Positions 217-62,006 of a stretch of 64,000 nucleotides of DNA are shown here, piece after piece. How positions within the stretch are numbered: position 1 is the stretch's first letter; the number at the start of each line of letters is the position of its first letter. The position numbers were made by a program, and so were the translations under genes. Source of the stretch: Marisa cornuarietis (taxonomy: Eukaryota > Mollusca > Gastropoda > Architaenioglossa > Ampullariidae). The notes below the pieces were generated by a model. It saw only the letters and a program-made list of their open reading frames with translations, did no database searches and was not told where the DNA came from. The DNA is taken from positions 2,542,001-2,606,000 of the forward strand of contig SMMW01000559.1 in assembly GCA_004794655.1 (NCBI GenBank). The letters run 5' to 3'.

Positions 217-298
217 GTCGTCGTGGCCGAGTGGTTAAGGCGATGGACTCGAAATCCATTGGGGTCTCCCCGCACAGGTTCGAATCCTGTCGGCGACG
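217..298 (+). tRNA. tRNA-Ser (anticodon CGA)
   Basis: Decodes UCG serine codons. The acceptor strand 217-223 (GTCGTCG) pairs with 291-297 (CGGCGAC), with one G-U pair and discriminator G298. The D-arm has the A-box sequence TGGCCGAGTGGTTAAGG. The anticodon arm TGGACTCGAAATCCA gives a CGA anticodon in the loop CTCGAAA. A long variable arm (GGGGTCTCCCC) marks it as a class II tRNA, and the T-arm ACAGG-TTCGAAT-CCTGT supplies the B box. No intron and no encoded CCA, as usual for eukaryotes. All stems are intact, so it looks functional rather than a SINE head. Confidence 0.95.
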
Positions 299-4338: not shown

Positions 4339-4403
4339 AATTAAATTTGAATTAATCAGCTCCGTAGTTAACGCCATGAACACGTGGGATAATTGAGTTT
4401 TCG
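4339..4403 (+). promoter_or_regulatory. duplicated conserved element, upstream copy (element A)
   Basis: It matches element B at 34982-35046 without gaps. A 22-bp block (AATTAAATTTG...TTAATCAGC) is identical, then come 15 bp of diverged spacer, ATGAACACG identical, 5 bp mostly diverged, TAATT identical, 2 bp different, and GTTTTCG identical. By my count about 50 of 65 positions match, and 43 of them fall in the four perfect blocks. The first block is an imperfect palindrome of TTAAT/ATTAA homeodomain-type half sites. It lies about 14.2 kb upstream of the unc-4 start codon, in the same orientation as copy B. Reading it as an enhancer is inference. Confidence 0.65.
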
Positions 4404-4760
4404 GTGTTTAGATCGGAGCGGGCTCCAAAAGATGACATATGTAATATCAGGCTAATCACTGGCTTATTGAACGGGCGCCGGCATTGCCTCGTAAACTTGC
4501 TGCTCTCCCTTTTCCCATCCCGGCCTCGTCTCGGGCTGGCCGAGAGTCTCGGAGGACGCACGAGATTACATCAGTCGCGTAGAGGGCGCGCTGGGCGGCT
4601 TACAGCGCGGAGTTGTGCTGCCCGCTTTTCATTAACAACGCCGATTGCTGACAAATGGCCGGCTCCTTCATTGATTCTGGTACCGATTACAAGGACAGGC
4701 TCCGTCATTTTCTGGTCTCAGCGCCTATGAATTTGCTGCCAGGAGATTCTTCCCCGGCAT
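4404..4760. promoter_or_regulatory. candidate conserved noncoding block next to element A
   Basis: This is non-repetitive, moderately GC-rich sequence directly following element A. It has short AT-rich core motifs (GCTAATCAC near 4450, CATTAAC near 4630, TTCATTGATTC near 4666) embedded in CpG-containing DNA, and no coding signature. The texture is that of a noncoding regulatory element, but I cannot show conservation from one sequence. Confidence 0.3.
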
Positions 4761-9548: not shown

Positions 9549-10108
9549 TCCAAAGTCATGACCCTCCAGAAAAGGATGCTTTCGCAAAACAGGGATAATA
9601 CTATTACAATCAAAAATAATAAACAAATATATAAATATGGGAGAAGGGGAGGGCAGTATGGAAATTGGGGGGGGGGAGGCAGAAAGTAAACAAGTGAGAA
9701 ATGGTCAGAGAAAGAGAAGAGGCCAACTCTGAAAACACCACAATTTTCATTTCCCCCCTTCACTTTAAAACCCAATACTTCCATTGTCAAGCATTTTAAC
9801 CCGTCATCCCAGGGGGACATCAATAGTACAAGTGTTTCACTCGTGTCACAGCGACGCTTCGCATGAATAAACTTGACTTCAATAAAGTGATAGATCGAAA
9901 GTTAATCGAAAATAAAATCCCAGATGGACAAGTTAGCGGCAGGGATGAACCCAAGCAAACTGAATACCCTTGCATTTTATTAAAGACAAACACAATTTTG
10001 TCCAAAATAATAAGTGTTTTTGCTTCATTACTGTCTAAAAGACTACGTTAAGGTTTGTAACGTCTCCCTCTTTGCCATCAACGTTCGGAGTTCTCTGTCA
10101 CTTTCTCT

Positions 10109-18568: not shown

Positions 18569-18932
18569 ATGAACATCCTGGCCACTGCCTACCCCAGTTC
18601 GTACCCCGGGTACGCAACTTTCGCCACGTTCACCCACTTCTCCAACACCCTCGCCGCTGGCTTTCCCACCTTCCACACACCTGTGGAAGAGCAGGTGTCG
18701 GCCTTGGATTGCTCTTTGCGCCCGTCGCGCTTCCAGGATCACCAACATCAACATCCGCATCACCTTCACCACCAGAATCACCGTCATCATCACTTCAGTG
18801 ACGTCTCCTTCTCTGTCGACCGCATCCTCGCAACAGGCGTTGACAACTCTTCCGCCGCCGCCTCCCCCTCTGATGACGTCACTGACGACTCATCCATAGG
18901 AGTAGGCGTGGAGGGTGGCAGAAGTGGTAAAG
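18569..18932 (+). CDS. unc-4: unc-4 coding exon 1
   Basis: Encodes residues 1-121 and the first base of codon 122. The start ATG opens [19 protein letters not shown] histidine-rich run (residues 57-75, including [14 protein letters not shown]) precedes an eh1-like repressor motif FSVDRIL at 81-87, which matches the position of an N-terminal eh1 motif in vertebrate UNCX. The donor AAG|GTGAGA at 18932/18933 leaves phase 1 and restores an Ala codon with exon 2. A competing donor at 18927 (GTG|GTAAAG) would break the frame. A strong pyrimidine tract ending TTTTAAAG at 18560 directly precedes the ATG, so the exon may begin at 18561 after a 5' UTR intron. Confidence 0.88.
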
Positions 18933-25400: not shown

Positions 25401-28400
25401 AGATAGAGCTGCGGTCCGTTTGATACGTCTACGTAGCGTGGGGCTAATGTTCTGCTTGGCTGGTTATCGTTTGCATCGACGGCTAATATTAGCTTTTTCC
25501 GTTTTTCTTCAGATTGCCATCATCCCTTTCACCCTTCTTTGTTATTGTAGTCATTGCTGAATATTTAACAGAACTCTTTTTAGGGAGAGGGCTGATGTGG
25601 GAGGTATGATTCACGCTAATTCCTGTCTCTCATTGTAAACAGTAGAGCATCGTTGCCATAAAATAATAATTTTAAGGTTTATGAGCAGCGCATACTGTAA
25701 TATTTAAATAGAATTTTATTATATTTTCAACTGGTTCCCTCGAGTTCTCGCTGCGTGCGTGCGTGCGTGCGTGCGCGTGCGTGCGTGCGTGCGTGTGTGT
25801 TAATCAGCAGTACTAGGACCTCCTCTCAGCTAGTAATTCGTATTTTAAAATACCCCAGCCTCCTTCAACCAACCAACCAACCAACCAACCAACCAACCAA
25901 CCAACCAACCAACCAACCATAACTAAATAAATAAATAATAAATTTTGTTGCAGCCGACAAAGGAGTGAGTGAAGGCAAAGAGGGTGGGTCCAAGCGGCGA
26001 CGCACGCGCACGAACTTCACGGGCTGGCAGCTGGAGCAGCTAGAAGCCGCTTTCCAGGACTCGCACTATCCTGACGTCTTCATGCGCGAGGCGCTTGCCC
26101 TCAAACTCGATCTCGTGGAGTCCCGCGTGCAGGTGAGCCAGAAAGTGCAAGACTGGGTGTGTCATCACAATCTTCCCTTTAAAAAATTAAATTATAAAAA
26201 TTATAAAAAAAGAGAACAGATGCACATAATTTGTGTTCCTGTATATACTTTCGTCATCACATTCCTGCTTCCCATGCGGTCGGTACGATTCTGTTTTGCT
26301 TTTAACTCTTTCTCATCCTCATCATGAAGCACTCATCCCCGCTGAATGACCACTGACTTCGTCTCTCATCACTATGGACAGCTCAACTGATATGTCATCA
26401 AAATATATGTCAATGAATTTTGCTAAACTCCTAATCGTCTTTGAGCTCTTCTTTTTAGTCTATCCGGGTCATTTACTTAAGAACATAAAAGATGTTTGTG
26501 TAGTTGTTTAGACAAGAACGAAAGATTGGACATTAAAAATTTCCCTATGAGCCACAATTGAAATACCTTCCAAATTGTATGTAACGTCCAACCAAAACGT
26601 TTCCTCACGAGGTTAGGGAGAGTGGTTTGTGGTTGATCATGCCTGACACCAGTTACTGCAAAAACTGACACAGCAACATGCTGGCGTCCCATAACATAGC
26701 AACACTGATTTATTTTAAAATTCAGAACGAGACACAGCAATGAATAATACATTGTTCTAAGCAGCCTTCAATTTCATCTTGTGACCCGATTCTTCAACCT
26801 ACCATGTTGTTTGCTGTCTTGAGGTTCCTGCCATTTGTCGCTGATGCTAGACATTCAGCCAGACTCTCTCCTTCGAGCAGTTTAAGCTGTTTCTCAAACC
26901 AAGGATCGGTAGTGTTTCTCGCCCCGCGCCCTCTGATCCTTCTAAATCCCATAACTCTCGCAAATCCCCAAATCCTTGCAAATCCATTGTGATGTTCAGG
27001 GAGTACGGAGCTGCCAGCTAGGTCAGATAATTAACTATACGCCCTGAACTTCCTGGAAGAGGAGCAAGGGGGAGAGGTATGGCGACGTCGTCGTCAGATG
27101 AGATGCCTTGGGACCCAAGGATCACCTCCTTCTGCACTTCATCTAGCGTCCGATGTGTCCCAGGGGGAGCGGAGGCAACGGGTGGGACATGCGAGAAAAT
27201 TGATTCTGAGGCCGCGCAACAGAACGGGAGGAAAAAGTCGGCGGATGGGAAATGGTCAGACCTGTCCCACGCGGCCAGTCGTTAAACACTGGGCAGGGGA
27301 TCCGGTGTCAGCGTCGCTGGGTGGCCGAACGCATGCCCTCGTGTCTTTTGTTCGCGGCGGCGCGAGTCACTTCGTCGGCTACTTCTACTGACAACGTTAG
27401 CGGCGACAACAGGCAAACAAAAGGAAAGGTGGGGGTTGCGGCGGTCTCCGGCCCTTGGACAGAAGGTCAGATGTGACGGCACATGCGCGAGCTACAAGGT
27501 GGCCAGCAGGTCCCGATCCCTTGTGGATCAATTGATTACTCAGGTCGCTGGAGAGACACTACCGAGGACGATGAATCGTCGTCACAACGGGAATCGCCCT
27601 CGCGAGCCCTCGCGAAAATTGACGACGTTAGCGGTAAGGAATAGCCGACGACGAACATCGTGGCCTCGTAAAGTCGTTCTTTTGGCTGCGCAGAACTCTG
27701 GCTTAAAAAAACTTCTTTTAAGAGTTTCCTTTCAAATGCTTATACATTACCTTCCTGGAAGTCGTATAGAAATTGGATATTCAAAGGAAACTACAAAAAC
27801 AGATTTTAAACTAGCTTTGCTATTTTCAACTAGATTTGCTAGCTCATGACATTAAAAAAAATTCAACACCTGCAGTTTACAGGTGTTACAAAAATTTGGA
27901 TTGGTCCGAAAAGAGATTTAACACTTCTGCTATTCTGACTGTATTCGTTACAAGCTGTAGTGACAAGGTGCACTTGTAGACTGTCGTTCTTATAGTGTAT
28001 TTATGTCTGTATATGAGGATGAAAGCTCACGTAGTGTGTGTGTGTGTGTGCGCGCGCGCGAGCGCAGGATCACGTGCATGCTTGTCTGTGTTTGTTTGTA
28101 GTGACAGGATTCTGAAACAAGGATGGATGGAATTGTCACAGAAATCCTTTCATGCCCTTGTGACATGTCCCGTTTACTTCTTGTAGCAGCCAAATTATCC
28201 TCACCAAACCGTAGTCTCCAACAAGCGCACTCATTCACCGCGTCCTCGTGCCCTGTTGTCGCGCTTTCGCCAGGCTTTCACCAGAAAGAGAAACGAACAG
28301 TTGCTTTTTTTTTAATTCCTTAACTACATTACTGCCAGGCATCACGGCAGAAACTCTGCATAAACATTTATCTTGTTTGCCAACCAAATGGCCCAACTGC

Positions 28401-30952
28401 AACACAGCGTCGCATAAAAGCCGTGTGTCAATAGATGCTTGTGTGGCAATTAAACGTGCGCCGGCTCAATAATGTTAGGAGCTATGTCAATCACAGACTT
28501 GCGGCCCGGCCATTGATCTCCACGCGTAAAGGGCCAGTGTGCATGCCCAAGAAAAGGGCACGTGCTACAGGGCCCCCGCCAGACAAGCGCTGATGTTCGG
28601 CCGGAGGCTTCGGTGCTGTCCTCCGCCATTTGCAAGCAGCGGGCTTGTTAATCTTTCGTCATATTTGCTTTTTTACTCTTCCTAATGGCAAAATGAATTT
28701 GAAATTAGTCTGGGTTACTCGTTTGTTGATAATGTGCCGCCCGGGGCGTTGTTGACGATCGTCGATTTCAGGGAGGGAGATTCTGTTTCGTAAATTCGCC
28801 ATCTTTGCCTTCAGCTAGGGATCCGGAATGCCGGTACACGATCGCATCAGCCTCATCGCTGCACGGGGGAGGCAATGTTCAATTTCCATACGTCAAACAA
28901 ATCAAATGCTAGCGACTAAACAACGGTGTGAGAACAGAGTAATTGTCATCAGTAAACGAGAGGAATCTCGGAACATTAAATGTTAATTAATATGACTTGT
29001 AGAACACCAAAATGATAACATGTTTGAATTGTTGAATATGGGAGGTAACGTTGATGGATACAAATGCTACTTTAAATGAGGTAACATGTTGAATAATTAC
29101 TATTACAGCACACGAAAAGTAACAAAATAAACAGGTTTCCCAGAGTTCATAATAAAATAAATGTGCTATAATTATGAGTGTGATAGGGGTTAATACGATT
29201 TGTTTTTATTCTGCTGTTATACCGACCTTGCAGGACAACCTTAAAAACGAGTCTCATTTCTTTTGTGAAAGATCGCTTGGCTGAAAATTCTAAAGAAAGA
29301 ATCCGTGAAGGTTAAAATAACATTGTAAAGAGTTTCTTTCTGTTTAAAAGAAAATAATATTAAGTGACACTTTAGAAGGGGGTTGAGACTGGTCATGTGT
29401 TCTGTTTAGGCTGATTAAGAGACAATGTTGACGAAATAAAAACACTCGTAATCTGGTTCTTACAAAACAAAATAGCAAAAATAACATAATATTTAAAAAA
29501 AAGCAGGTAAACAGGTAGATTCTAGGATAGGTCCTAGCAAACAGCAAGCGGCCCCGGTTCACAACATTTGAAATGCTGGCAGCTAGACGATGATGCGCAA
29601 ACAGGATAATGGCGGTCAGTATGCCAGGCAAAACTCGTATCCCATCCTGTGTCCAGAACATGTTTATATATTTAGTTCAGAACCCAACCTTATGTTTAAT
29701 TAAGAACATGATCACGTTTAGTTCAGAACACAGCCGTGTGTTTCGTTGAGAACATGATTATATGTTTAGTTCAGAACACAATGGTATGTTTCATTGTGAA
29801 CATGATTACATATTTAGTACAGAACACTTACATTTAGATATTTTTGTGCAGGTTTGGTTCCAGAACAGAAGAGCAAAATGGCGGAAGAAGGAAAATACGA
29901 GAAAGGGGCCTGGCAGGCCGGCTCACAACGCCCACCCGCAGACGTGCAGCGGCGAGCCTCTGGACCCCAGCGAGATCGAGCGACGTGAGCAGCTGCGACA
30001 AGAGAAGAAGCGACGTAAGCACGAAGAGCGACTACGGCGTCTCCATCACAGACGCAGCGGGCACGTGACAGCAAGCGAGGACAGCGGGGAGCACACTCTC
30101 TCACGTCTGGAGGACCAAGGCCTACCAGACTCCGATTTCGGGCAACCGGTGGCGAACGGGACCACCCGGGCGTCTTCACCGTGCAACTCCACAGATGCCT
30201 CGTCTAACGGTGCCAGCAGCGGAGAGGACACCGACTCGGGCAGCAAAGAGGCCAGGGAGGCCTCTACGGCAAAGGTTTGCCTGCCCGAGGCCGTCAGGAC
30301 TGCCAGCAAATGTCCCTTCTCCATCGAGAAACTGCTGGAGGTGCCGAGAGTTCCGCGCGGCAGGCGGCCCAACTCCAAGTACCCGCGTGTACAGGCGTGC
30401 AAGTCCCTGGGGCCGTTGGCCTTGGGCATGCTTCCGCTTTTCCAGATCACGCAGCCCGTTGGCTTCCTGGTTGAGCAGCTGCAGTCGGAGGAGGCGCGTG
30501 CTTCCTCTCCGCATGCCCAGCGTGGGGCTCACAGAGAGTCTGGAGAAAAGTTCCCGCACAGGCTCACCTCCACCGGCCAAGTGGTGGTGGCGCGGCGGGC
30601 GGTGTCCGAGCACTTGCCACGCACGGTGAGCAGCGGGAAGCTGGAGCGGCAGACTGAACAGTTGTGGAGGCGCGTACACCGCGAGGCCAGCGGATGCCGC
30701 GCGGAGTCCGCCGAGCAGGCGTCAGTGGAGGAGAAGAAACCGCCGCGCGACGCCGAGGACGACATCGACGTTGTCAGCGACGAGCAGGAAGAAGGCAAGG
30801 GGGATAACTCAAATATCAGCGAGGGAGCAAACTCGCTGACAGAAGCAGACGAGGAAGGGGGAAATGAATGCCACATGGATGCCGTGGATCAGACCGTGGA
30901 ACACAACGCTGTTGGAGGCGCATCCGAAGACTTGATAGAACACACAGACTAA
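18569..30952 (+). CDS. unc-4: Unc-4/UNCX-class homeobox transcription factor (three coding exons, 547 residues)
   Basis: join(18569-18932, 25954-26132, 29852-30952). A sequence-specific nuclear transcription factor; relatives in nematode, fly and vertebrates specify motor neurons and sclerotome and repress targets through Groucho/UNC-37. The homeodomain is at residues 136-195 (starts [42 protein letters not shown] with Gln50). It is followed by the Unc-4-specific extension [18 protein letters not shown] (200-217) and a basic charged stretch (about 224-250). Eh1-like motifs lie at 81-87 (FSVDRIL) and 337-343 (FSIEKLL). A second C-terminal motif, [12 protein letters not shown] (380-391), is also typical of UNCX proteins. 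The C-terminus is acidic. Splice sites AAG|GTGAGA, TTGCAG|CC, CAG|GTGAGC and GTGCAG|GT are consistent in phase (1, then 0). It is the only gene in the window apart from the tRNA. Confidence 0.95.
20210..20345 (+). mobile_element. decayed SINE-like fragment
   Basis: The motif CATCATGGGACAGGTACCTGATA followed by AACTTAAAGGCAGTGGAG resembles the central segment of the family-1 SINEs. An imperfect tRNA-like head (GAGCGGAAGGACGAGCGCTTGACC) precedes it. Weak and old. Confidence 0.35.
21092..21154. repeat. (CA)n microsatellite
   Basis: Perfect CA dinucleotide array inside unc-4 intron 1. Confidence 0.95.
21261..21352. repeat. two tandem copies of a 46-bp unit
   Basis: CAGTAGCTGCAAGTGTTAGA at 21261 and CAGTAGCTGCAAATGCTAGA at 21307 start two 46-bp units differing at a handful of positions, ending CATCTCTAGAA and CATCTCTGTAA. 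Confidence 0.8.
23180..23655 (-). pseudogene. LINE reverse transcriptase fragment, broken
   Basis: The minus strand conceptually reads [20 protein letters not shown], then a segment containing [17 protein letters not shown], and further on [12 protein letters not shown] and LLCGSET. These match the order of the [FY]ADD active site, the DLQ...LN.LE..C.KWGL.VN..KTK segment and the LLYGSE.W region of non-LTR retrotransposon reverse transcriptases. At least four in-frame stops interrupt it, including one directly before TDD. It is a dead, 5'-truncated insertion in unc-4 intron 1, transcribed opposite to the gene. Confidence 0.75.
24905..25135 (-). mobile_element. tRNA-head SINE (family 1)
   Basis: The minus-strand head GAAGCCGAGTGGTTAAAGCAG (A box) and GGGTTCGAACCCGG-like B-box region derive from a Leu/Ser-type tRNA. 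The body shares GAGGGTTGGGAAA and GAAAGCTGGCCCCGAAAAAAG with the SINE at 54548-54826. A TA-rich run (24894-24902) lies at its 3' end. No clear target-site duplication. Confidence 0.75.
25320..25520. promoter_or_regulatory. candidate intronic regulatory element
   Basis: Non-repetitive sequence about 0.5 kb upstream of exon 2 with ATTAATTAAATGACA near 25347, CTAATGTTC, GTTTGCATCG (octamer-like) and GGCTAATATTAGC. The core TAATTAAATGA is shared with the block at 41033 and, as TAATTAAAT, with 47231. Regulatory function is inference. Confidence 0.35.
25752..25800. repeat. (GTGC)n microsatellite
   Basis: Alternating purine-pyrimidine tetranucleotide array in intron 1. Confidence 0.93.
25866..25919. 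repeat. (CAAC)n microsatellite next to the exon 2 acceptor
   Basis: About 13 perfect CAAC units ending 34 bp before the exon 2 splice acceptor. It takes up the place where branch point and pyrimidine tract usually lie. Only an AT-rich stretch and TTTTGTTGCAG remain next to the exon. Confidence 0.95.
25954..26132 (+). CDS. unc-4: unc-4 coding exon 2 (first 46 homeodomain residues)
   Basis: Encodes residues 122-181. A short linker ([14 protein letters not shown]) leads into homeodomain positions 1-46, [17 protein letters not shown] to LVESRVQ. This covers the N-terminal arm, helices 1 and 2 and the start of helix 3. The acceptor is TTTTGTTGCAG at 25953 and the donor CAG|GTGAGC at 26132/26133, phase 0. 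Reading past the donor gives a run of unrelated residues and a stop, so it is a splice junction and not a terminal exon. Confidence 0.96.
28330..28730. promoter_or_regulatory. candidate intronic regulatory block
   Basis: About 400 bp of non-repetitive sequence with a high density of short transcription-factor-like motifs: CAATTAAACG near 28447, TGTCAATCACAG (PBX/Hox-like) near 28484, TTGTTAATC near 28645 and AAAATGAATTTGAAATT at 28690-28706. The last is nearly repeated at 50663-50680. GC is higher than in its flanks and there is no coding signature. Function is inference. Confidence 0.35.
29656..29830. repeat. tandem repeat of about 47 bp, four copies, abutting exon 3 acceptor
   Basis: Units start with GAACATG at 29656, 29704, 29750 and 29798 (spacings 48, 46, 48) and share TTTAGTTCAGAACAC. 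The last unit ends about 20 bp before the AG of the exon 3 acceptor. The frame leading into exon 3 is open through part of the repeat, which creates a false upstream Met at 29762. Confidence 0.9.
29852..30952 (+). CDS. unc-4: unc-4 coding exon 3 (rest of homeodomain and C-terminal domain)
   Basis: Encodes residues 182-547. It starts with homeodomain positions 47-60 ([14 protein letters not shown]) and continues [18 protein letters not shown] and an Arg/Lys/Glu-rich stretch. A Ser/Thr-rich linker leads to the eh1-like PFSIEKLL (336-343) and the UNCX-type [12 protein letters not shown] (380-391). The tail is acidic (many Asp/Glu after about residue 475) and ends EHTD before TAA at 30950-30952. 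Eh1 motifs in this family recruit Groucho/TLE co-repressors. The acceptor is TTTTTGTGCAG at 29851. The exon is GC-rich against an AT-rich background, which explains the many open frames in its other five frames. Confidence 0.95.
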   Translation, partial: VWFQNRRAKWRKKENTRKGPGRPAHNAHPQTCSGEPLDPSEIERREQLRQEKKRRKHEERLRRLHHRRSGHVTASEDSGEHTLSRLEDQGLPDSDFGQPVANGTTRASSPCNSTDASSNGASSGEDTDSGSKEAREASTAKVCLPEAVRTASKCPFSIEKLLEVPRVPRGRRPNSKYPRVQACKSLGPLALGMLPLFQITQPVGFLVEQLQSEEARASSPHAQRGAHRESGEKFPHRLTSTGQVVVARRAVSEHLPRTVSSGKLERQTEQLWRRVHREASGCRAESAEQASVEEKKPPRDAEDDIDVVSDEQEEGKGDNSNISEGANSLTEADEEGGNECHMDAVDQTVEHNAVGGASEDLIEHTD

Positions 30953-34981: not shown

Positions 34982-35046
34982 AATTAAATTTGAATTAATC
35001 AGCAGTTGTTTTGATGCAATGAACACGGGGCGTAATTAGGTTTTCG
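34982..35046 (+). promoter_or_regulatory. duplicated conserved element, downstream copy (element B)
   Basis: Second copy of element A (4339-4403), same orientation, gap-free over 65 bp. Perfect blocks: 22 bp (AATTAAATTTG...TTAATCAGC), ATGAACACG, TAATT and GTTTTCG, with a 15-bp spacer that differs at 10 positions. It lies 4.0 kb after the unc-4 stop codon. It is followed by CCCACGTGATCAG and CCATATTTATGAATCG, also motif-like. Strong pairwise conservation against a diverged neighbourhood argues for selection; an enhancer role is inference. Confidence 0.65.
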
Positions 35047-35119
35047 CCCACGTGATCAGCGGGCTACTGCAGGTCGAGTCCCGCGACGCGCTGGCCGCCA
35101 TATTTATGAATCGCGAGGC

Positions 35120-51744: not shown

Positions 51745-51839
<95 letters not shown>

Positions 51840-51915
51840 CGTAATGCGCAGGTATCCATTCAGAAGAATGGTCATTGCGCAGCAAAAACAAAATAAATAA
51901 AAAATAAAAAAACAA
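51735..51915 (-). mobile_element. LINE 3' tail with (CAT)n end, flanked by 17-bp direct repeats
   Basis: On the minus strand: an A/T-rich segment, GTTTTTGCTGCGCAATGACC, ATTCTTCTGAATGGATACC, TGCGCATTAC, then a (CAT)n array (51746-51839 on the plus strand). The same tail occurs at 61840-62006 (plus) and 55722-55810 (minus). ATGTGGAGACTGTGACC occurs at 51718-51734 and 51916-51932, a likely target-site duplication, although the area already carries a related tandem unit. Confidence 0.75.
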
Positions 51916-52139
51916 ATGTGGAGACTGTGACCGCCGCCTAACTCCTAATGTGGAGACAGTGTTGATAACCAGGCAGGGTTACAACCTTTTAATTTGTTCT
52001 TCCGAACATCCACTAAAATAAAATAATATCGTAACAGAACAGCAAGTCAATGTATAACAACTGACATTTTTCACATACTGTGGAATGACTGTGTCTATGC
52101 ATTAGGCAAGGCAAGGTCGTGTGCTTTCGATTATCACTT

Positions 52140-52570
52140 ACTACTCGCCACTCAGTGACTCAACTAAACAACTAATGGATTACAAAGTCGTCACTGATGG
52201 TCACCCGCCACTCAGTGACTCAGTTGCACAATTTGCTGGATTACAATAAACGATCATTGATTGTCACTTTCCACTCAATAACTCAGCTAGACAACTGCTG
52301 GATTACAATTATCCATCTCTGATTGTCACTTGCCACTCTGTGACTCATGTGCACAACTAGTGGATTACAATTAGCCATCTCTGATTGTCACTTGCCACTC
52401 TGTGACTCATGTGCACAACTAGTGGATTACAATTAGCCATCACTGATTGTCACTCACCACTCAGTGACTCCACTGCACAATTGCTGGGTTACGATCAATC
52501 ATCGCTCAATGTCACTCGCCACCCAGTGACTCAATTATACAACTGCTGGATTACAATTAGCCCGTCATTG
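52140..52570. repeat. 62-bp minisatellite, seven copies
   Basis: The anchor CCACTCAGTGACTC or a variant recurs at 52148, 52208, 52271, 52333, 52395, 52457 and 52519 (spacing 60, 63, then 62 throughout). Each unit carries GGATTACAATTAGCCATC and GATTGTCACT. The fourth and fifth units are practically identical, a sign of recent unit duplication. Confidence 0.95.
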
Positions 52571-55141: not shown

Positions 55142-57900
55142 TGGAGCAAGAGTTCTCTAAAAATTTAGTTTTTTTGCCTGCTTCTAGTGCGTGTGCGTAC
55201 GTGCGTGCGTGCGTACACACACACACACACACACATACAAACGCATATACATTGTCACGTGTTCTTTTCACAAAGTACAAAACAGTTGCCTAAACACTGT
55301 TCACATTCGTGTATTCTTGTTGGGCCTTAGACAAATAACAAAACACCACAGATGGTTCTTGACACAAGCCCTGGGGTTCACGACCGACCACAAAGCAAAC
55401 AGGAAAAATACACTGGCAAGCAAACACCTTGGCTACGGTACATAAGGCACCAAAATTTCTACAATTATAATACCTGCAGAATGCCAAATTAACGCAGAGG
55501 TCCCCTCGGCGGACTAACTTAAATGGGAATTGATTTACGTGCAATATCACAGTTTTTCCAAAAGAATTCGTAGGTCAGGGCTAGGCCTGATCGTCCACAC
55601 ATCAATTACAGAACTTGACGTTTCTGATGGAGGTCAGGATTGAACCTCAGTGTCCTTCATAAAAAACAACCACTAACGTGAAATTACTCACTAAATTTGT
55701 TTGACATTCGGGTCGGGACAGACGATGATGATGTCGATTTATATTGCGCAGGTATCCATTCAAAAGAATGCTGATTGCGCAGCAAAAACAGAAGAGAAAA
55801 AAAACAGGAAAGAGCGAGAGCTGCACACAGCAACCCAGTGATAGGCGGGATCCACACAGTTTCCTCATCTTTAAAATTTGTTAATTTTTTCCGTTCTTGC
55901 CGATTTTCTCTTTTTAGTATTTATCTTCTCAATCCGTTGCTCAAACACCTCTATTCTTACATAGAATATAAACTATAAATTTTACTTCACTTAGCGCAAT
56001 GAAGACACAATGTGCAAGGAGAGAGCACTACGACCTATTCACATACGCTACTCACGACTATCATTCTCGCGATCTTTCCTTCATTTCCATATTGTGGCAC
56101 GCGCTTCTTGCATTTTTCAGGGGACATAACTACGCTAATATTCAGCATTCTCGTGATTCGTCAGTTGTCTACCTTGAACCTCGTAAGCGTCCCTCTGGTG
56201 CGTGTTGCTCCCCTGTGCGTTCTGACATAAATGTAATAAAGTTTATGTACAGGTTGTATGCGATGCCTTTTGTTTAAGCAAACTTTGTACTTTGGGATAG
56301 ATAAAACATGGCATCAATATGAATTTACTGAATTGTTCGTAAAATCCACGTTACAGTGAACTGGATGCACTAATAAACTTACTTGTCATCATATAATTCG
56401 TTTGTCATCACATAGATCGCTTGTCACCGCGATACTGTCACCATGACTGATACACTAAAATTATTAGTAAGACCAATTATTTCACTACTTAGCCTCCACC
56501 GAGGTTTTGCGTTTTGTTGGTATGATGGGGGTTTTACGTGACCACAGATAATGCCATCGAACGAATTAACTGTTCATCTGTGAGGTGAGCATATAAAATA
56601 CTGTACTGATCAATGGCAGGTTATTGAAAATAGAGACAGAATGAAATTAATTTGAATGAGAATGAGAATATTGCAAGCACACCAGACAAAGCCCAGCCAA
56701 ACTGGGCCCACTGAATGTGCCGACCTCATTGTCCTGACTCAAAAGAAATTTAGTTGATGAATTGCATTTAAATTGTAAATACACGTAAATACTTAATTCT
56801 TGCAAGTCTCATCCTAATTGAACGTTTTGCAGTGAACTTAGCACAAGAAAAAAAAACCAAATAGGAGTGATTTATTATTCCATATATCAGCATTTGTCAA
56901 TTTTATCATTCACCGCATCTTAATTTAAATGTGTGGATCCCCGTAAGTTTATAAAAGACGTATAAGAGATTATGAACCACGGTGTTCATTGATTTCGCAT
57001 CAAATCAAGACATAAGTTTTATGATGCTATCTTTATCCTTATCTAACCTTGCATTTTTGTCAGTTACCCTTGAAATGTACCCAACTCACAGTGAGCTTCT
57101 TGTGTTGGGACGCTGCTTTGTAAAAATGCAGTGGATCGAAAACATGTAATAGCTGAAAAATTTGCAATGTTTTAACAAAATGTAATGTAATGGAAACTTT
57201 CAATGAAAAAATCCGATAGCACATAAATGGGTGATTACCCACCTTAACCCACCAAAAGTATCTAGAACTAAATAGAAGTCTAGAATAGGGCAACATAAGA
57301 GGTCTGGCAACCATTCCAGTACAAAAGAGAGCACCAGCAACAGTAACAGTAATCACTGAGCAGCGACCCTCCTCCCACACCTCCTCAAACCACCCCCCCT
57401 GCTCGCCCCGCCCATCCTTCACTCCCCATATTCCCCCAAATCTCCATTCCCCACAGCTCAAAATCGCCTTCAGGTGGAAGCTCTTTCCCTCCTAAAACCA
57501 AAATTGCTAATACAAAGAGAGGAACTTTTGTAGGCACTACCAACAGCCGGCATGGACAAAGCTACGGATGGTTGATGGGTAAACCCACAGACTTTAGATC
57601 ATAGAAGTCTGCGGGTAAACCGTGTCACACCGGGTCTTTCATAATCTTTCTTGATTATTTACTCGCTTGTTAATCAATGAATGAAACAATTTCTTTGTCA
57701 GTCAATTCAGGCGACGTAATAAAATTAACGACCATAACAAGTATATATATATATATTTTTATATATCCGTATGTCTTCAATTGCAAAAGCAAACACAATT
57801 CACTTTCATTTCAATGTTCTACTCGTCAGGAATAAGCCCCATCGTCATACTGAAAACTTTTATAAGGAGACTTACATTGTGAGTTCTCAATGGCTTGGAA
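54837..57900. other. gene-free stretch
   Basis: No gene is recognised. Contains a short tRNA-like SINE head near 54972-55025, (CA)n at 55084-55139 and 55216-55235, the LINE tail at 55722-55810, and a family-2 SINE 3' segment near 57455-57500 (AAATCGCC ... GGTGGAAGCTCTTTCCCTCC). Confidence 0.5.
55722..55810 (-). mobile_element. LINE 3' tail (same family as 61720-62006)
   Basis: On the minus strand: GTTTTTGCTGCGCAATCAGC, ATTCTTTTGAATGGATACC, TGCGCAATATAAATCGAC and a short CATCATCATC end. Only the tail is kept, with three triplets left of the microsatellite. Confidence 0.7.
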
Positions 57901-61719: not shown

Positions 61720-61929
61720 TCACCAACCACGTTTCGAAAAAAACTGAAGACCCATCTGTTTATTTAAGACGGACTTAAACTTAAACAACCAAGCAATACT
61801 TGTGTCTTTATTTTTTACTTTCCTGGTGTTTATCTATTTATTTACTTCTTTTTTCTTATTTTTTATTTATTTTGTTTTTGCTGCGCAATGAGCATTCTTC
61901 CGAATGGATACCTGCGCATTACAAATGGA

Positions 61930-62006
<77 letters not shown>
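61720..62006 (+). mobile_element. LINE 3' end with (CAT)n tail
   Basis: The frame near 61735 reads RKKLKTHLFI followed by a stop, the usual C-terminus of a LINE reverse transcriptase. About 130 bp of T-rich 3' UTR follows. Then comes the tail GTTTTTGCTGCGCAATGAGC, ATTCTTCCGAATGGATACC, TGCGCATTAC and (CAT)n at 61930-62006. The longest of three copies of this tail; it shows the direction and explains the (CAT)n/(GAT)n arrays at 51746 and 61930 as LINE 3' termini. Confidence 0.8.

What the first reader, a model, noticed from the sequence alone, without database searches (positions are those of the whole stretch)
4339..4403. A 65-bp element is duplicated on both sides of unc-4 with identical internal spacing (second copy 34982-35046)
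Two same-strand copies 30.6 kb apart align without a gap. Blocks of 22, 9, 5 and 7 bp are perfect while the 15-bp spacer has largely diverged (5 of 15 match) and the flanks do not align. A recent transposon would be uniformly similar; alternating perfect and diverged blocks suggest selection on a multi-site protein-binding array. The first block holds TTAAT/ATTAA homeodomain-type half sites, so UNC-4 autoregulation or input from another homeodomain protein is possible (inference). I know of no described element with this sequence.
Basis: partly seen in the sequence, partly recalled or inferred. Interest (0 to 1): 0.88.

Follow-up and report, generated by a model that had tools for sequence, protein, structure and literature searches.

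The report
Twin DNA elements bracket snail unc-4
A 65-letter DNA element sits in the same direction on both sides of the nerve-cell control gene unc-4 in what is probably an apple-snail genome, with no other intact copy found in the 534-million-letter assembly, and the two are likely a matched pair of switches for that gene, although switch activity and conservation in other species remain untested.

Summary
Two same-strand copies (4339-4403, 34982-35046) match ungapped at 50 of 65 positions: blocks of 22, 9, 5 and 7 bp are perfect, and the differences are clumped (p about 0.001-0.01). Two whole-genome pattern searches, one for each half, each return exactly two perfect places in 534 Mb, and they are these two. 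Other hits are at control level, so this is not a dispersed repeat. The copies lie 14.2 kb upstream of the predicted start codon and 4.0 kb past the stop of a three-exon unc-4 gene. No intact copy was found near a second, divergent unc-4 gene of the same genome. The invariant 22-bp block contains TAAT-N7-TAAT with an A/T-rich spacer. That is the published cooperative dimer site of Gsx/Ind and, similarly, MSX2 and BARX1. The paired-like site TAAT-N3-ATTA, predicted for UNCX, is absent. Best reading: a matched pair of unc-4 cis-regulatory modules, likely read by an N7-dimer homeodomain protein. UNC-4 autoregulation is less likely. A boundary or looping pair, or a relic of an ancient unc-4 tandem duplication, is not excluded. 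Conservation across species could not be tested. New member of a known kind.

The parts
4339..4403 (+). element copy 1 (65 bp)
   Evidence: 50 of 65 positions identical to copy 2, ungapped; one of two exact genome-wide matches for both half-patterns
34982..35046 (+). element copy 2 (65 bp)
   Evidence: same calls as copy 1; same strand, 30,643 bp downstream
4339..4360 (+). invariant 22-bp block, copy 1
   Evidence: perfect match to 34982-35003
34982..35003 (+). invariant 22-bp block, copy 2
   Evidence: perfect match to 4339-4360
4340..4354 (-). TAATTCAAATTTAAT = TAAT-N7-TAAT, Gsx/Ind/MSX2/BARX1-type dimer site, copy 1
   Evidence: pattern scan; consensus from passages of PMC11260452 and PMC10325903; binding itself untested
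34983..34997 (-). TAATTCAAATTTAAT = TAAT-N7-TAAT, copy 2
4376..4403 (+). second conserved half ATGAACACG-N5-TAATT-N2-GTTTTCG, copy 1
   Evidence: exact only here and at 35019-35046 in 534 Mb
35019..35046 (+). second conserved half, copy 2
4411..4424 (+). possible 3' continuation GATCGGAGCGGGCT, copy 1
   Evidence: gapped alignment (letters checked); weak on its own (7% of random flank pairs)
35054..35065 (+). possible 3' continuation GATCAGCGGGCT, copy 2
   Evidence: same caution
18569..18932 (+). unc-4 predicted coding exon 1 (MNILATAYPSS...VSFSVDRIL)
   Evidence: ORF and phase-compatible GT donor; N-terminus resembles Gigantopelta and Batillaria unc-4 by eye; no Pfam domain
25954..26132 (+). 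unc-4 exon 2, homeodomain profile positions 1-46
   Evidence: PF00046 E 1.9e-13; 84% to the paralogue's exon 2
29852..30952 (+). unc-4 exon 3, homeodomain C-terminus to stop codon
   Evidence: PF00046 E 2.3e-5; exons 2 and 3 together 88% identical over the whole query to a Pomacea canaliculata homeobox protein

Best explanation
Two same-strand copies of one 65-bp element, with no other intact copy found in this 534-Mb assembly, flank the unc-4 homeobox gene and are likely a matched pair of cis-regulatory modules (enhancer cores) for unc-4. Shown: the pair, its rarity, its position 14.2 kb upstream of the predicted start codon and 4.0 kb past the stop, the clumped pattern of identity, and a TAAT-N7-TAAT site in the invariant block. 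Inferred: a homeodomain protein that dimerises on TAAT-N7-TAAT sites (Gsx/Ind first, MSX2- or BARX1-type second) would bind the 22-bp block cooperatively, and partner proteins would bind the 9-, 5- and 7-bp blocks at fixed spacing. Each copy would then drive overlapping unc-4 expression, one from upstream and one from downstream, like shadow enhancers. Selection on the spacing and blocks would keep both copies while the spacers drifted.
For: Both half-patterns return exactly two perfect places in 534 Mb, the two unc-4 flanks (6 hits at up to 2 mismatches, reversed-pattern control 4; 22 hits at up to 3 mismatches, control 29). Two random places in 534 Mb would lie within 31 kb with probability about 1e-4 (arithmetic). 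Identity is clumped: longest run p 0.009, runs p 0.0023, worst 15-bp stretch p 0.0011. The 43 bp after the first block match at 28 of 43, reached by 5.5e-5 of 200,000 random window pairs. The 15 differences are 6 transitions and 9 transversions, near the 1:2 of saturated change. The nearest recognised downstream gene is a galactosyltransferase at window-equivalent 72106-73476, 37 kb past copy 2. TAAT-N7-TAAT with a fully A/T last five spacer bases (AAATT) fits the published Gsx2 dimer rule; 0.6-1% of shuffled blocks contain it. A CACGTG E-box lies inside copy 1 (4381) and 2 bp after copy 2 (35049); 3.5% of 86-bp stretches of the window hold one.
Against: No chromatin, reporter or cross-species data. 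TAAT-N7-TAAT is not rare in the window (7 hits including the two copies). The block also contains ATTA-N9-TAAT, which fits the loose 9-bp class I wrote for VENTX spacing (orientation rule not checked), and at least one of the five dimer-arrangement classes I scored turns up in 4.8-7.9% of shuffled blocks, so the Gsx assignment is a lead. The clumping is weaker once the ascertained block is conceded (remaining 43 bp: longest run p 0.20, runs p 0.02). Small copy-and-paste without selection cannot be fully excluded, because non-aligning flanks are also expected if only about 65-86 bp was ever copied. Gsx in this genome could not be searched, nor was a repeat-pattern control of the pattern search answered. 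Pfam was run on 23 of the 104 window ORFs of 90 aa or more, so another gene nearby is not fully excluded.
Confidence: 0.55

Rival explanations
1. Matched boundary or tethering pair: the two copies bind the same architectural protein and pair with each other, looping unc-4 and its enhancers into one 31-kb domain, as nhomie and homie do round Drosophila eve.
For: The copies bracket the whole predicted gene. In flies, boundaries flanking eve pair through shared binding sites (abstract of PMC13405320) and pairing is orientation-dependent (passages of PMC11305674).
Against: I ran no search for insulator-protein sites, so none is known here. The invariant block is homeodomain-like. 65 bp is short beside the 597-bp nhomie fragment used in the fly work. 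By the fly rule, self-type pairing is head-to-head, so same-strand copies would give a circle-loop, not the insulated stem-loop of eve.
Confidence: 0.12
2. Relic of tandem gene duplication: an ancestral unc-4 locus with its element was duplicated in tandem; the second gene moved away (now on C211) and its element stayed behind as copy 2, retained by the remaining gene.
For: Same strand and gene-sized spacing. A second unc-4 gene exists at C211 and groups with second genes of Batillaria and Babylonia at 100/95. Two unc-4 genes of the bivalve Sinanodonta carry near-adjacent locus tags (035339, 035343) on contigs of the same listed length. A 12-bp trace of the block lies 21.6 kb before the paralogue's homeobox, as in copy 1 (21,551 and 21,645 bp).
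Against: No gene remnant was recognised beside copy 2 (ORFs nearby have no Pfam match). The trace is near chance: 0.04 such matches expected in 60 kb, and local alignment at that pre-chosen site p 0.02-0.05. The two genes are on different contigs, and a clade joining bivalve second genes is neither supported nor rejected (p-AU 0.19). This explains origin, not function, and is compatible with the best explanation.
Confidence: 0.12
3. UNC-4 autoregulation: UNC-4 binds the TAAT half-sites of both copies.
For: Homeodomain half-sites are present in both copies.
Against: The cooperative site of paired-like factors, TAAT-N3-ATTA, where UNCX is among those predicted to bind cooperatively (PMC10325903 passages), is in neither copy.
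Confidence: 0.08
4. Small duplicated insertion or old mobile-element fragment without function.
For: Two copies in one locus can arise by copy-and-paste; other repeat pairs exist in the window.
Against: No third intact copy found in 534 Mb; both copies flank the same gene; clumped identity.
Confidence: 0.1
5. Transcribed structured RNA or short coding exon shared by the two sites.
For: One frame is open in both copies and ends at the same place (IKFELISS..A-MNT..N*); fold z-scores of -2.25 to -3.30 for three of four strands, -0.55 for the fourth.
Against: The predicted folds differ between the copies and use non-homologous arms (read). No Rfam family at either copy. Differences fall evenly on codon positions, 6/4/5, and there is no Pfam match.
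Confidence: 0.03

Closest known systems
Conserved noncoding developmental enhancers of animals (e.g. the 25 bilaterian elements of Frith and Ni 2023, PMC10735318; abstract and matched passages seen)
   Same: Short noncoding segment near a developmental homeobox gene, with perfectly kept stretches.
   Different: Here the comparison is between two copies in one locus, not between species. unc-4/Uncx has 0 occurrences in that paper's main text; its supplements were not seen.
Gsx/Ind cooperative dimer sites (PMC11260452, PMC10325903; matched passages seen)
   Same: Head-to-tail TAAT-N7-TAAT with an A/T-rich spacer.
   Different: Binding by the snail protein is untested. The site is only part of a larger fixed array, and MSX2 and BARX1 use a similar site.
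Shadow enhancers (recalled, not from a call)
   Same: Two separate modules presumed to serve one gene.
   Different: As I recall, shadow enhancers usually share inputs without long sequence identity; these two share 22 bp perfectly and one fixed layout.
nhomie/homie boundary pair of Drosophila eve (PMC13405320 abstract, PMC11305674 passages)
   Same: A pair bracketing a homeobox gene; shared sequence in both members.
   Different: No boundary evidence here, insulator-protein sites were not searched for, and the element is much shorter.

Membership tests
Conserved noncoding element (CNE) | noncoding | tested here: met
   codon-position pattern even (6/4/5), no Pfam match, no Rfam family at either copy; a shared open frame with a shared stop is the one result the other way
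Conserved noncoding element (CNE) | lies by a developmental regulator gene | tested here: met
   flanks unc-4
Conserved noncoding element (CNE) | conserved between species | not testable with these tools
   own genome has no relatives held; scans of viral contigs and prokaryote genomes gave 0 and say nothing about animals
Transposable element or dispersed repeat | many copies away from the locus | tested here: not met
   2 exact copies in 534 Mb for each half-pattern, rest at control level
Transposable element or dispersed repeat | roughly even divergence between copies | tested here: not met
   differences clumped, p 0.001-0.01
Gsx/Ind-type dimer site | TAAT-N7-TAAT head to tail | tested here: met
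   minus strand 4354-4340 and 34997-34983
Gsx/Ind-type dimer site | A/T-rich last five spacer bases | tested here: met
   spacer TCAAATT, last five AAATT (rule)
Gsx/Ind-type dimer site | bound cooperatively by the protein | not testable with these tools
   needs EMSA or CUT&RUN
Paired-like (UNCX) dimer site | TAAT-N3-ATTA | tested here: not met
   in the window only at 9596, 13748, 33670, 57717, 58234; in neither copy
Shadow enhancer pair | both modules drive overlapping expression of one gene | not testable with these tools
   needs reporters
Paired boundary elements (nhomie/homie type) | two elements bracket the gene and share sequence blocks | tested here: met
   positions and shared blocks
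Paired boundary elements (nhomie/homie type) | shared site for an insulator protein | not tested
   no insulator-protein motif was searched for
Paired boundary elements (nhomie/homie type) | physical pairing and insulation | not testable with these tools
   needs Micro-C
Structured RNA family | fold kept in both copies | tested here: not met
   predicted folds differ between the copies; no Rfam match at either copy

The most novel reading that the evidence does not exclude
The two copies work as one device: a gene is bracketed by a duplicated, spacing-locked array built round a Gsx/Ind-type dimer site, and the two arrays pair across 31 kb through the same proteins, so that neural patterning input both switches on unc-4 and closes the loop round it. 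The second array is the orphaned enhancer of a departed unc-4 twin, a regulatory fossil of an ancient tandem gene pair.
Probability: 0.07. Interest if true: 0.8.

Novelty: new member of a known kind. Interest (0 to 1): 0.5.

Why it matters
Pairs of regulatory modules for one gene are usually recognised by activity, not by sequence (recalled). A pair that shares a perfect 22-bp block and one fixed spacing plan, with no other intact copy found in the genome, would expose the grammar of a snail neural enhancer directly: constrained blocks stay, spacers drift. It also gives a concrete, cheap test of whether Gsx/Ind-type dimer sites feed unc-4 in a mollusc, and of whether a moved gene can leave its enhancer behind.

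Tried and rejected
Transposon or dispersed repeat: rejected by two whole-genome pattern searches. Third copy in the window, in the 100 kb round the best off-target hit (C2), or in the 60 kb round the second unc-4 gene: best scores 28 of 50 fixed positions in each, apart from the two copies themselves. Off-target near-match on C2 (L004, one mismatch in 21): its second half is absent and no homeobox exon motif was found by pattern in the 100 kb round it. Structured RNA: folds differ between copies, no Rfam match at either. Coding exon: a shared open frame with a shared stop, but no codon-position bias and no Pfam match. Other genes in the window: Pfam run on 23 of 104 ORFs of 90 aa or more, only unc-4 exons matched. 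UNC-4 paired-like dimer: site absent. Literature: a 19-mer of the block is in 0 held papers; a 13-mer is in two papers on aptamers; among the listings of searches I saw no title or abstract opening that names such an element. Tree on full proteins left the C211 paralogue on a long branch; the homeodomain-plus tree joined it to Batillaria and Babylonia second genes. A positive control with a repeat pattern and a search for Gsx in the genome did not complete.

Full report
What is there. The window (64 kb) is part of contig C431 of an unnamed 534-Mb, 572-contig assembly. Its homeobox gene is unc-4: the translated exons 2 and 3 match a Pomacea canaliculata homeobox protein at 88% identity over the whole query, and the two group together at 100/99. 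The genome is therefore probably an ampullariid. One recent paper gives 174.0 Mb of repeats as 32.24% of the Marisa genome, about 540 Mb, which fits (passage of PMC13336756; the species itself is my inference). The predicted gene has three coding exons, 18569-18932, 25954-26132 and 29852-30952, in compatible phase, giving 547 residues. Pfam was run on 23 of the 104 window ORFs of 90 aa or more and matched only unc-4 exons. In the 20 kb fetched on each side, Pfam was run on two ORFs: one is a galactosyltransferase (window-equivalent 72106-73476, minus strand), the other, 309 aa long and upstream, has no match.

The pair. Copy 1 (4339-4403) ends 14.2 kb before the predicted start codon; copy 2 (34982-35046) begins 4.0 kb after the stop codon. 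They are on the same strand and align without a gap at 50 of 65 positions: perfect blocks of 22, 9, 5 and 7 bp, with a 15-bp spacer matching at 5. BLAST of the window against itself gives E 3e-7, and 8e-7 in 104 kb. Flanks are at the random level (24-34% ungapped identity against 25.5%). A gapped alignment runs on to GATC(GG)AGCGGGCT, ending at 4424/35065, but the 3' flank score is reached by 7% of random pairs, so I treat it as possible only.

More than chance, and not a repeat. The 21-mer of the first block has 6 places in the genome at up to 2 mismatches: 2 exact (these two), 1 with one mismatch, 3 with two; the same pattern read backwards has 4. The second half has 22 places at up to 3 mismatches: 2 exact (again these two), 3 with two mismatches, 17 with three; the reversed control has 29. 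Two separate half-patterns therefore each single out the two flanks of unc-4 in 534 Mb. The tool's notes say that counts of repeats are lower bounds, and a positive control with a known repeat did not complete (last try). A DNA search with 141 bases round copy 1 found only copy 1 itself, not even copy 2, so that mode is too insensitive to count. Two random places would lie within 31 kb with probability about 1e-4 (arithmetic). A composite scan with the 50 shared positions finds no third copy in the window or in 100 kb of C2 (best 28 of 50).

Is it selection? Shuffling the match vector with ends fixed gives p 0.009 for a run of 22, 0.0023 for so few runs and 0.0011 for so poor a 15-bp stretch. 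The 43 bp after the first block match at 28, reached by 5.5e-5 of random pairs; within them alone the clumping is weaker (runs p 0.02, longest run p 0.20). The 15 differences are 6 transitions and 9 transversions, close to saturation. This supports old copies with kept blocks. It does not exclude a small copy event followed by uneven drift, because non-aligning flanks are expected if only the element was ever copied. Conservation in other species would settle it and could not be tested; scans of viral contigs and prokaryote genomes gave 0 matches, as expected.

What reads it. On the minus strand the invariant block reads TAAT-TCAAATT-TAAT, that is TAAT-N7-TAAT. Passages of PMC11260452 state that Gsx2 forms cooperative dimers on two head-to-tail TAAT sites exactly 7 bp apart, that Gsx1 and Drosophila Ind do so on similarly arranged sites, and that A/T-rich spacers are preferred. 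Passages of PMC10325903 report a highly similar site for MSX2 and BARX1. The last five spacer bases here are AAATT. Only 0.6-1% of shuffled versions of the block contain the arrangement. But 4.8-7.9% contain at least one of the five dimer-arrangement classes I scored, the block itself also fits my loosely written 9-bp class (ATTA-N9-TAAT), and the window holds 7 N7 sites, so this is a good lead and not proof. Human and mouse UNCX are predicted to bind cooperatively, and the paired-like dimer is TAAT-N3-ATTA; that site is absent from both copies, which lowers the autoregulation idea. A CACGTG E-box lies inside copy 1 (4381) and 2 bp after copy 2 (35049); 3.5% of 86-bp stretches hold one.

The second unc-4 gene. 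The genome has another unc-4 gene on C211 (exon matches of 74% and 84%). Sixty kilobases round it hold no intact element (best 28 of 50), only a 12-bp trace, GAATTAATCAGC, 21,551 bp before its homeobox, close to copy 1's 21,645 bp. About 0.04 such matches are expected in 60 kb at that stringency; the local alignment p at that pre-chosen site is 0.02-0.05; and the 100 kb of C2 also holds one such match, which is how it was chosen. In a tree of 32 homeodomain-plus regions the paralogue joins second genes of Batillaria and Babylonia at 100/95, so the duplication predates their split; a wider clade with bivalve second genes is neither supported nor rejected (p-AU 0.19). A tandem duplication that left two same-strand elements, followed by departure of one gene, would explain the geometry. 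It is a hypothesis.

Other readings. Boundary pairing of the eve type (abstract of PMC13405320; passages of PMC11305674) fits the bracketing. By the fly rule, self-type pairing is head-to-head, so same-strand copies would give a circle-loop; insulator-protein sites were not searched for. RNA: three of four strands fold better than shuffles (z -2.25 to -3.30; the fourth -0.55) but the two copies fold differently, and the only Rfam match in the window is a tRNA at 217-298. Coding: a shared frame with a shared stop, but no codon-position bias and no Pfam match.

Verdict. A real, locus-specific pair of noncoding elements, most likely twin cis-regulatory modules of unc-4 with homeodomain input. It is a new member of a known kind, unusual in that the two modules share their sequence plan. 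A 19-mer of the block is in none of the held papers, a 13-mer only in two on aptamers, and the main text of the paper on 25 deeply conserved animal elements, PMC10735318, does not mention unc-4 or Uncx.

Noticed in passing
G000 C211:4041445-4047949 (L035, L037, L038-L043): A second, fast-diverging unc-4 gene; Batillaria and Babylonia have second genes that group with it (100/95), so several caenogastropods carry an old unc-4 pair.
   Followed up: yes
window 4442-4456: A second TAAT-N7-TAAT site (TAATATCAGGCTAAT) lies 38 bp beyond copy 1.
   Followed up: no
window 4381 and 35049: A CACGTG E-box lies inside copy 1 and 2 bp after copy 2, at different offsets, as if one site had moved round an otherwise fixed array.
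   Followed up: partly
window 4340-4396 and 34983-35039: One reading frame is open in both copies and stops at the same place with different stop codons (IKFELISSVVNAMNTWDN* and IKFELISSCFDAMNTGRN*).
   Followed up: yes
window 25800-25811: TTAATCAGCAGT, shared with copy 2 (34995), recurs about 140 bp upstream of unc-4 exon 2.
   Followed up: no
G000 C2:3100297-3100317 (L004): Best off-target match: AATTTAATTTGAATTAATCAGC followed by GTTAAC as in copy 1's spacer; no second half, and no homeobox exon motif found in the 100 kb round it.
   Followed up: partly
window 217-298: A tRNA gene (Rfam RF00005, 63.6 bits).
   Followed up: no
window-equivalent 72106-73476 (L020:8106-9476, minus strand): Galactosyltransferase gene (PF01762, E 4.5e-35), the nearest recognised gene downstream of unc-4.
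   Followed up: partly
window 51757-51919 and 61844-62006; 52143-52562: A 163-bp inverted pair, 93% complementary, holding a GAT/ATC microsatellite and GCGCAGGTATCCATTC, with a third relative at 55721; and tandem 62-bp units beside it.
   Followed up: no
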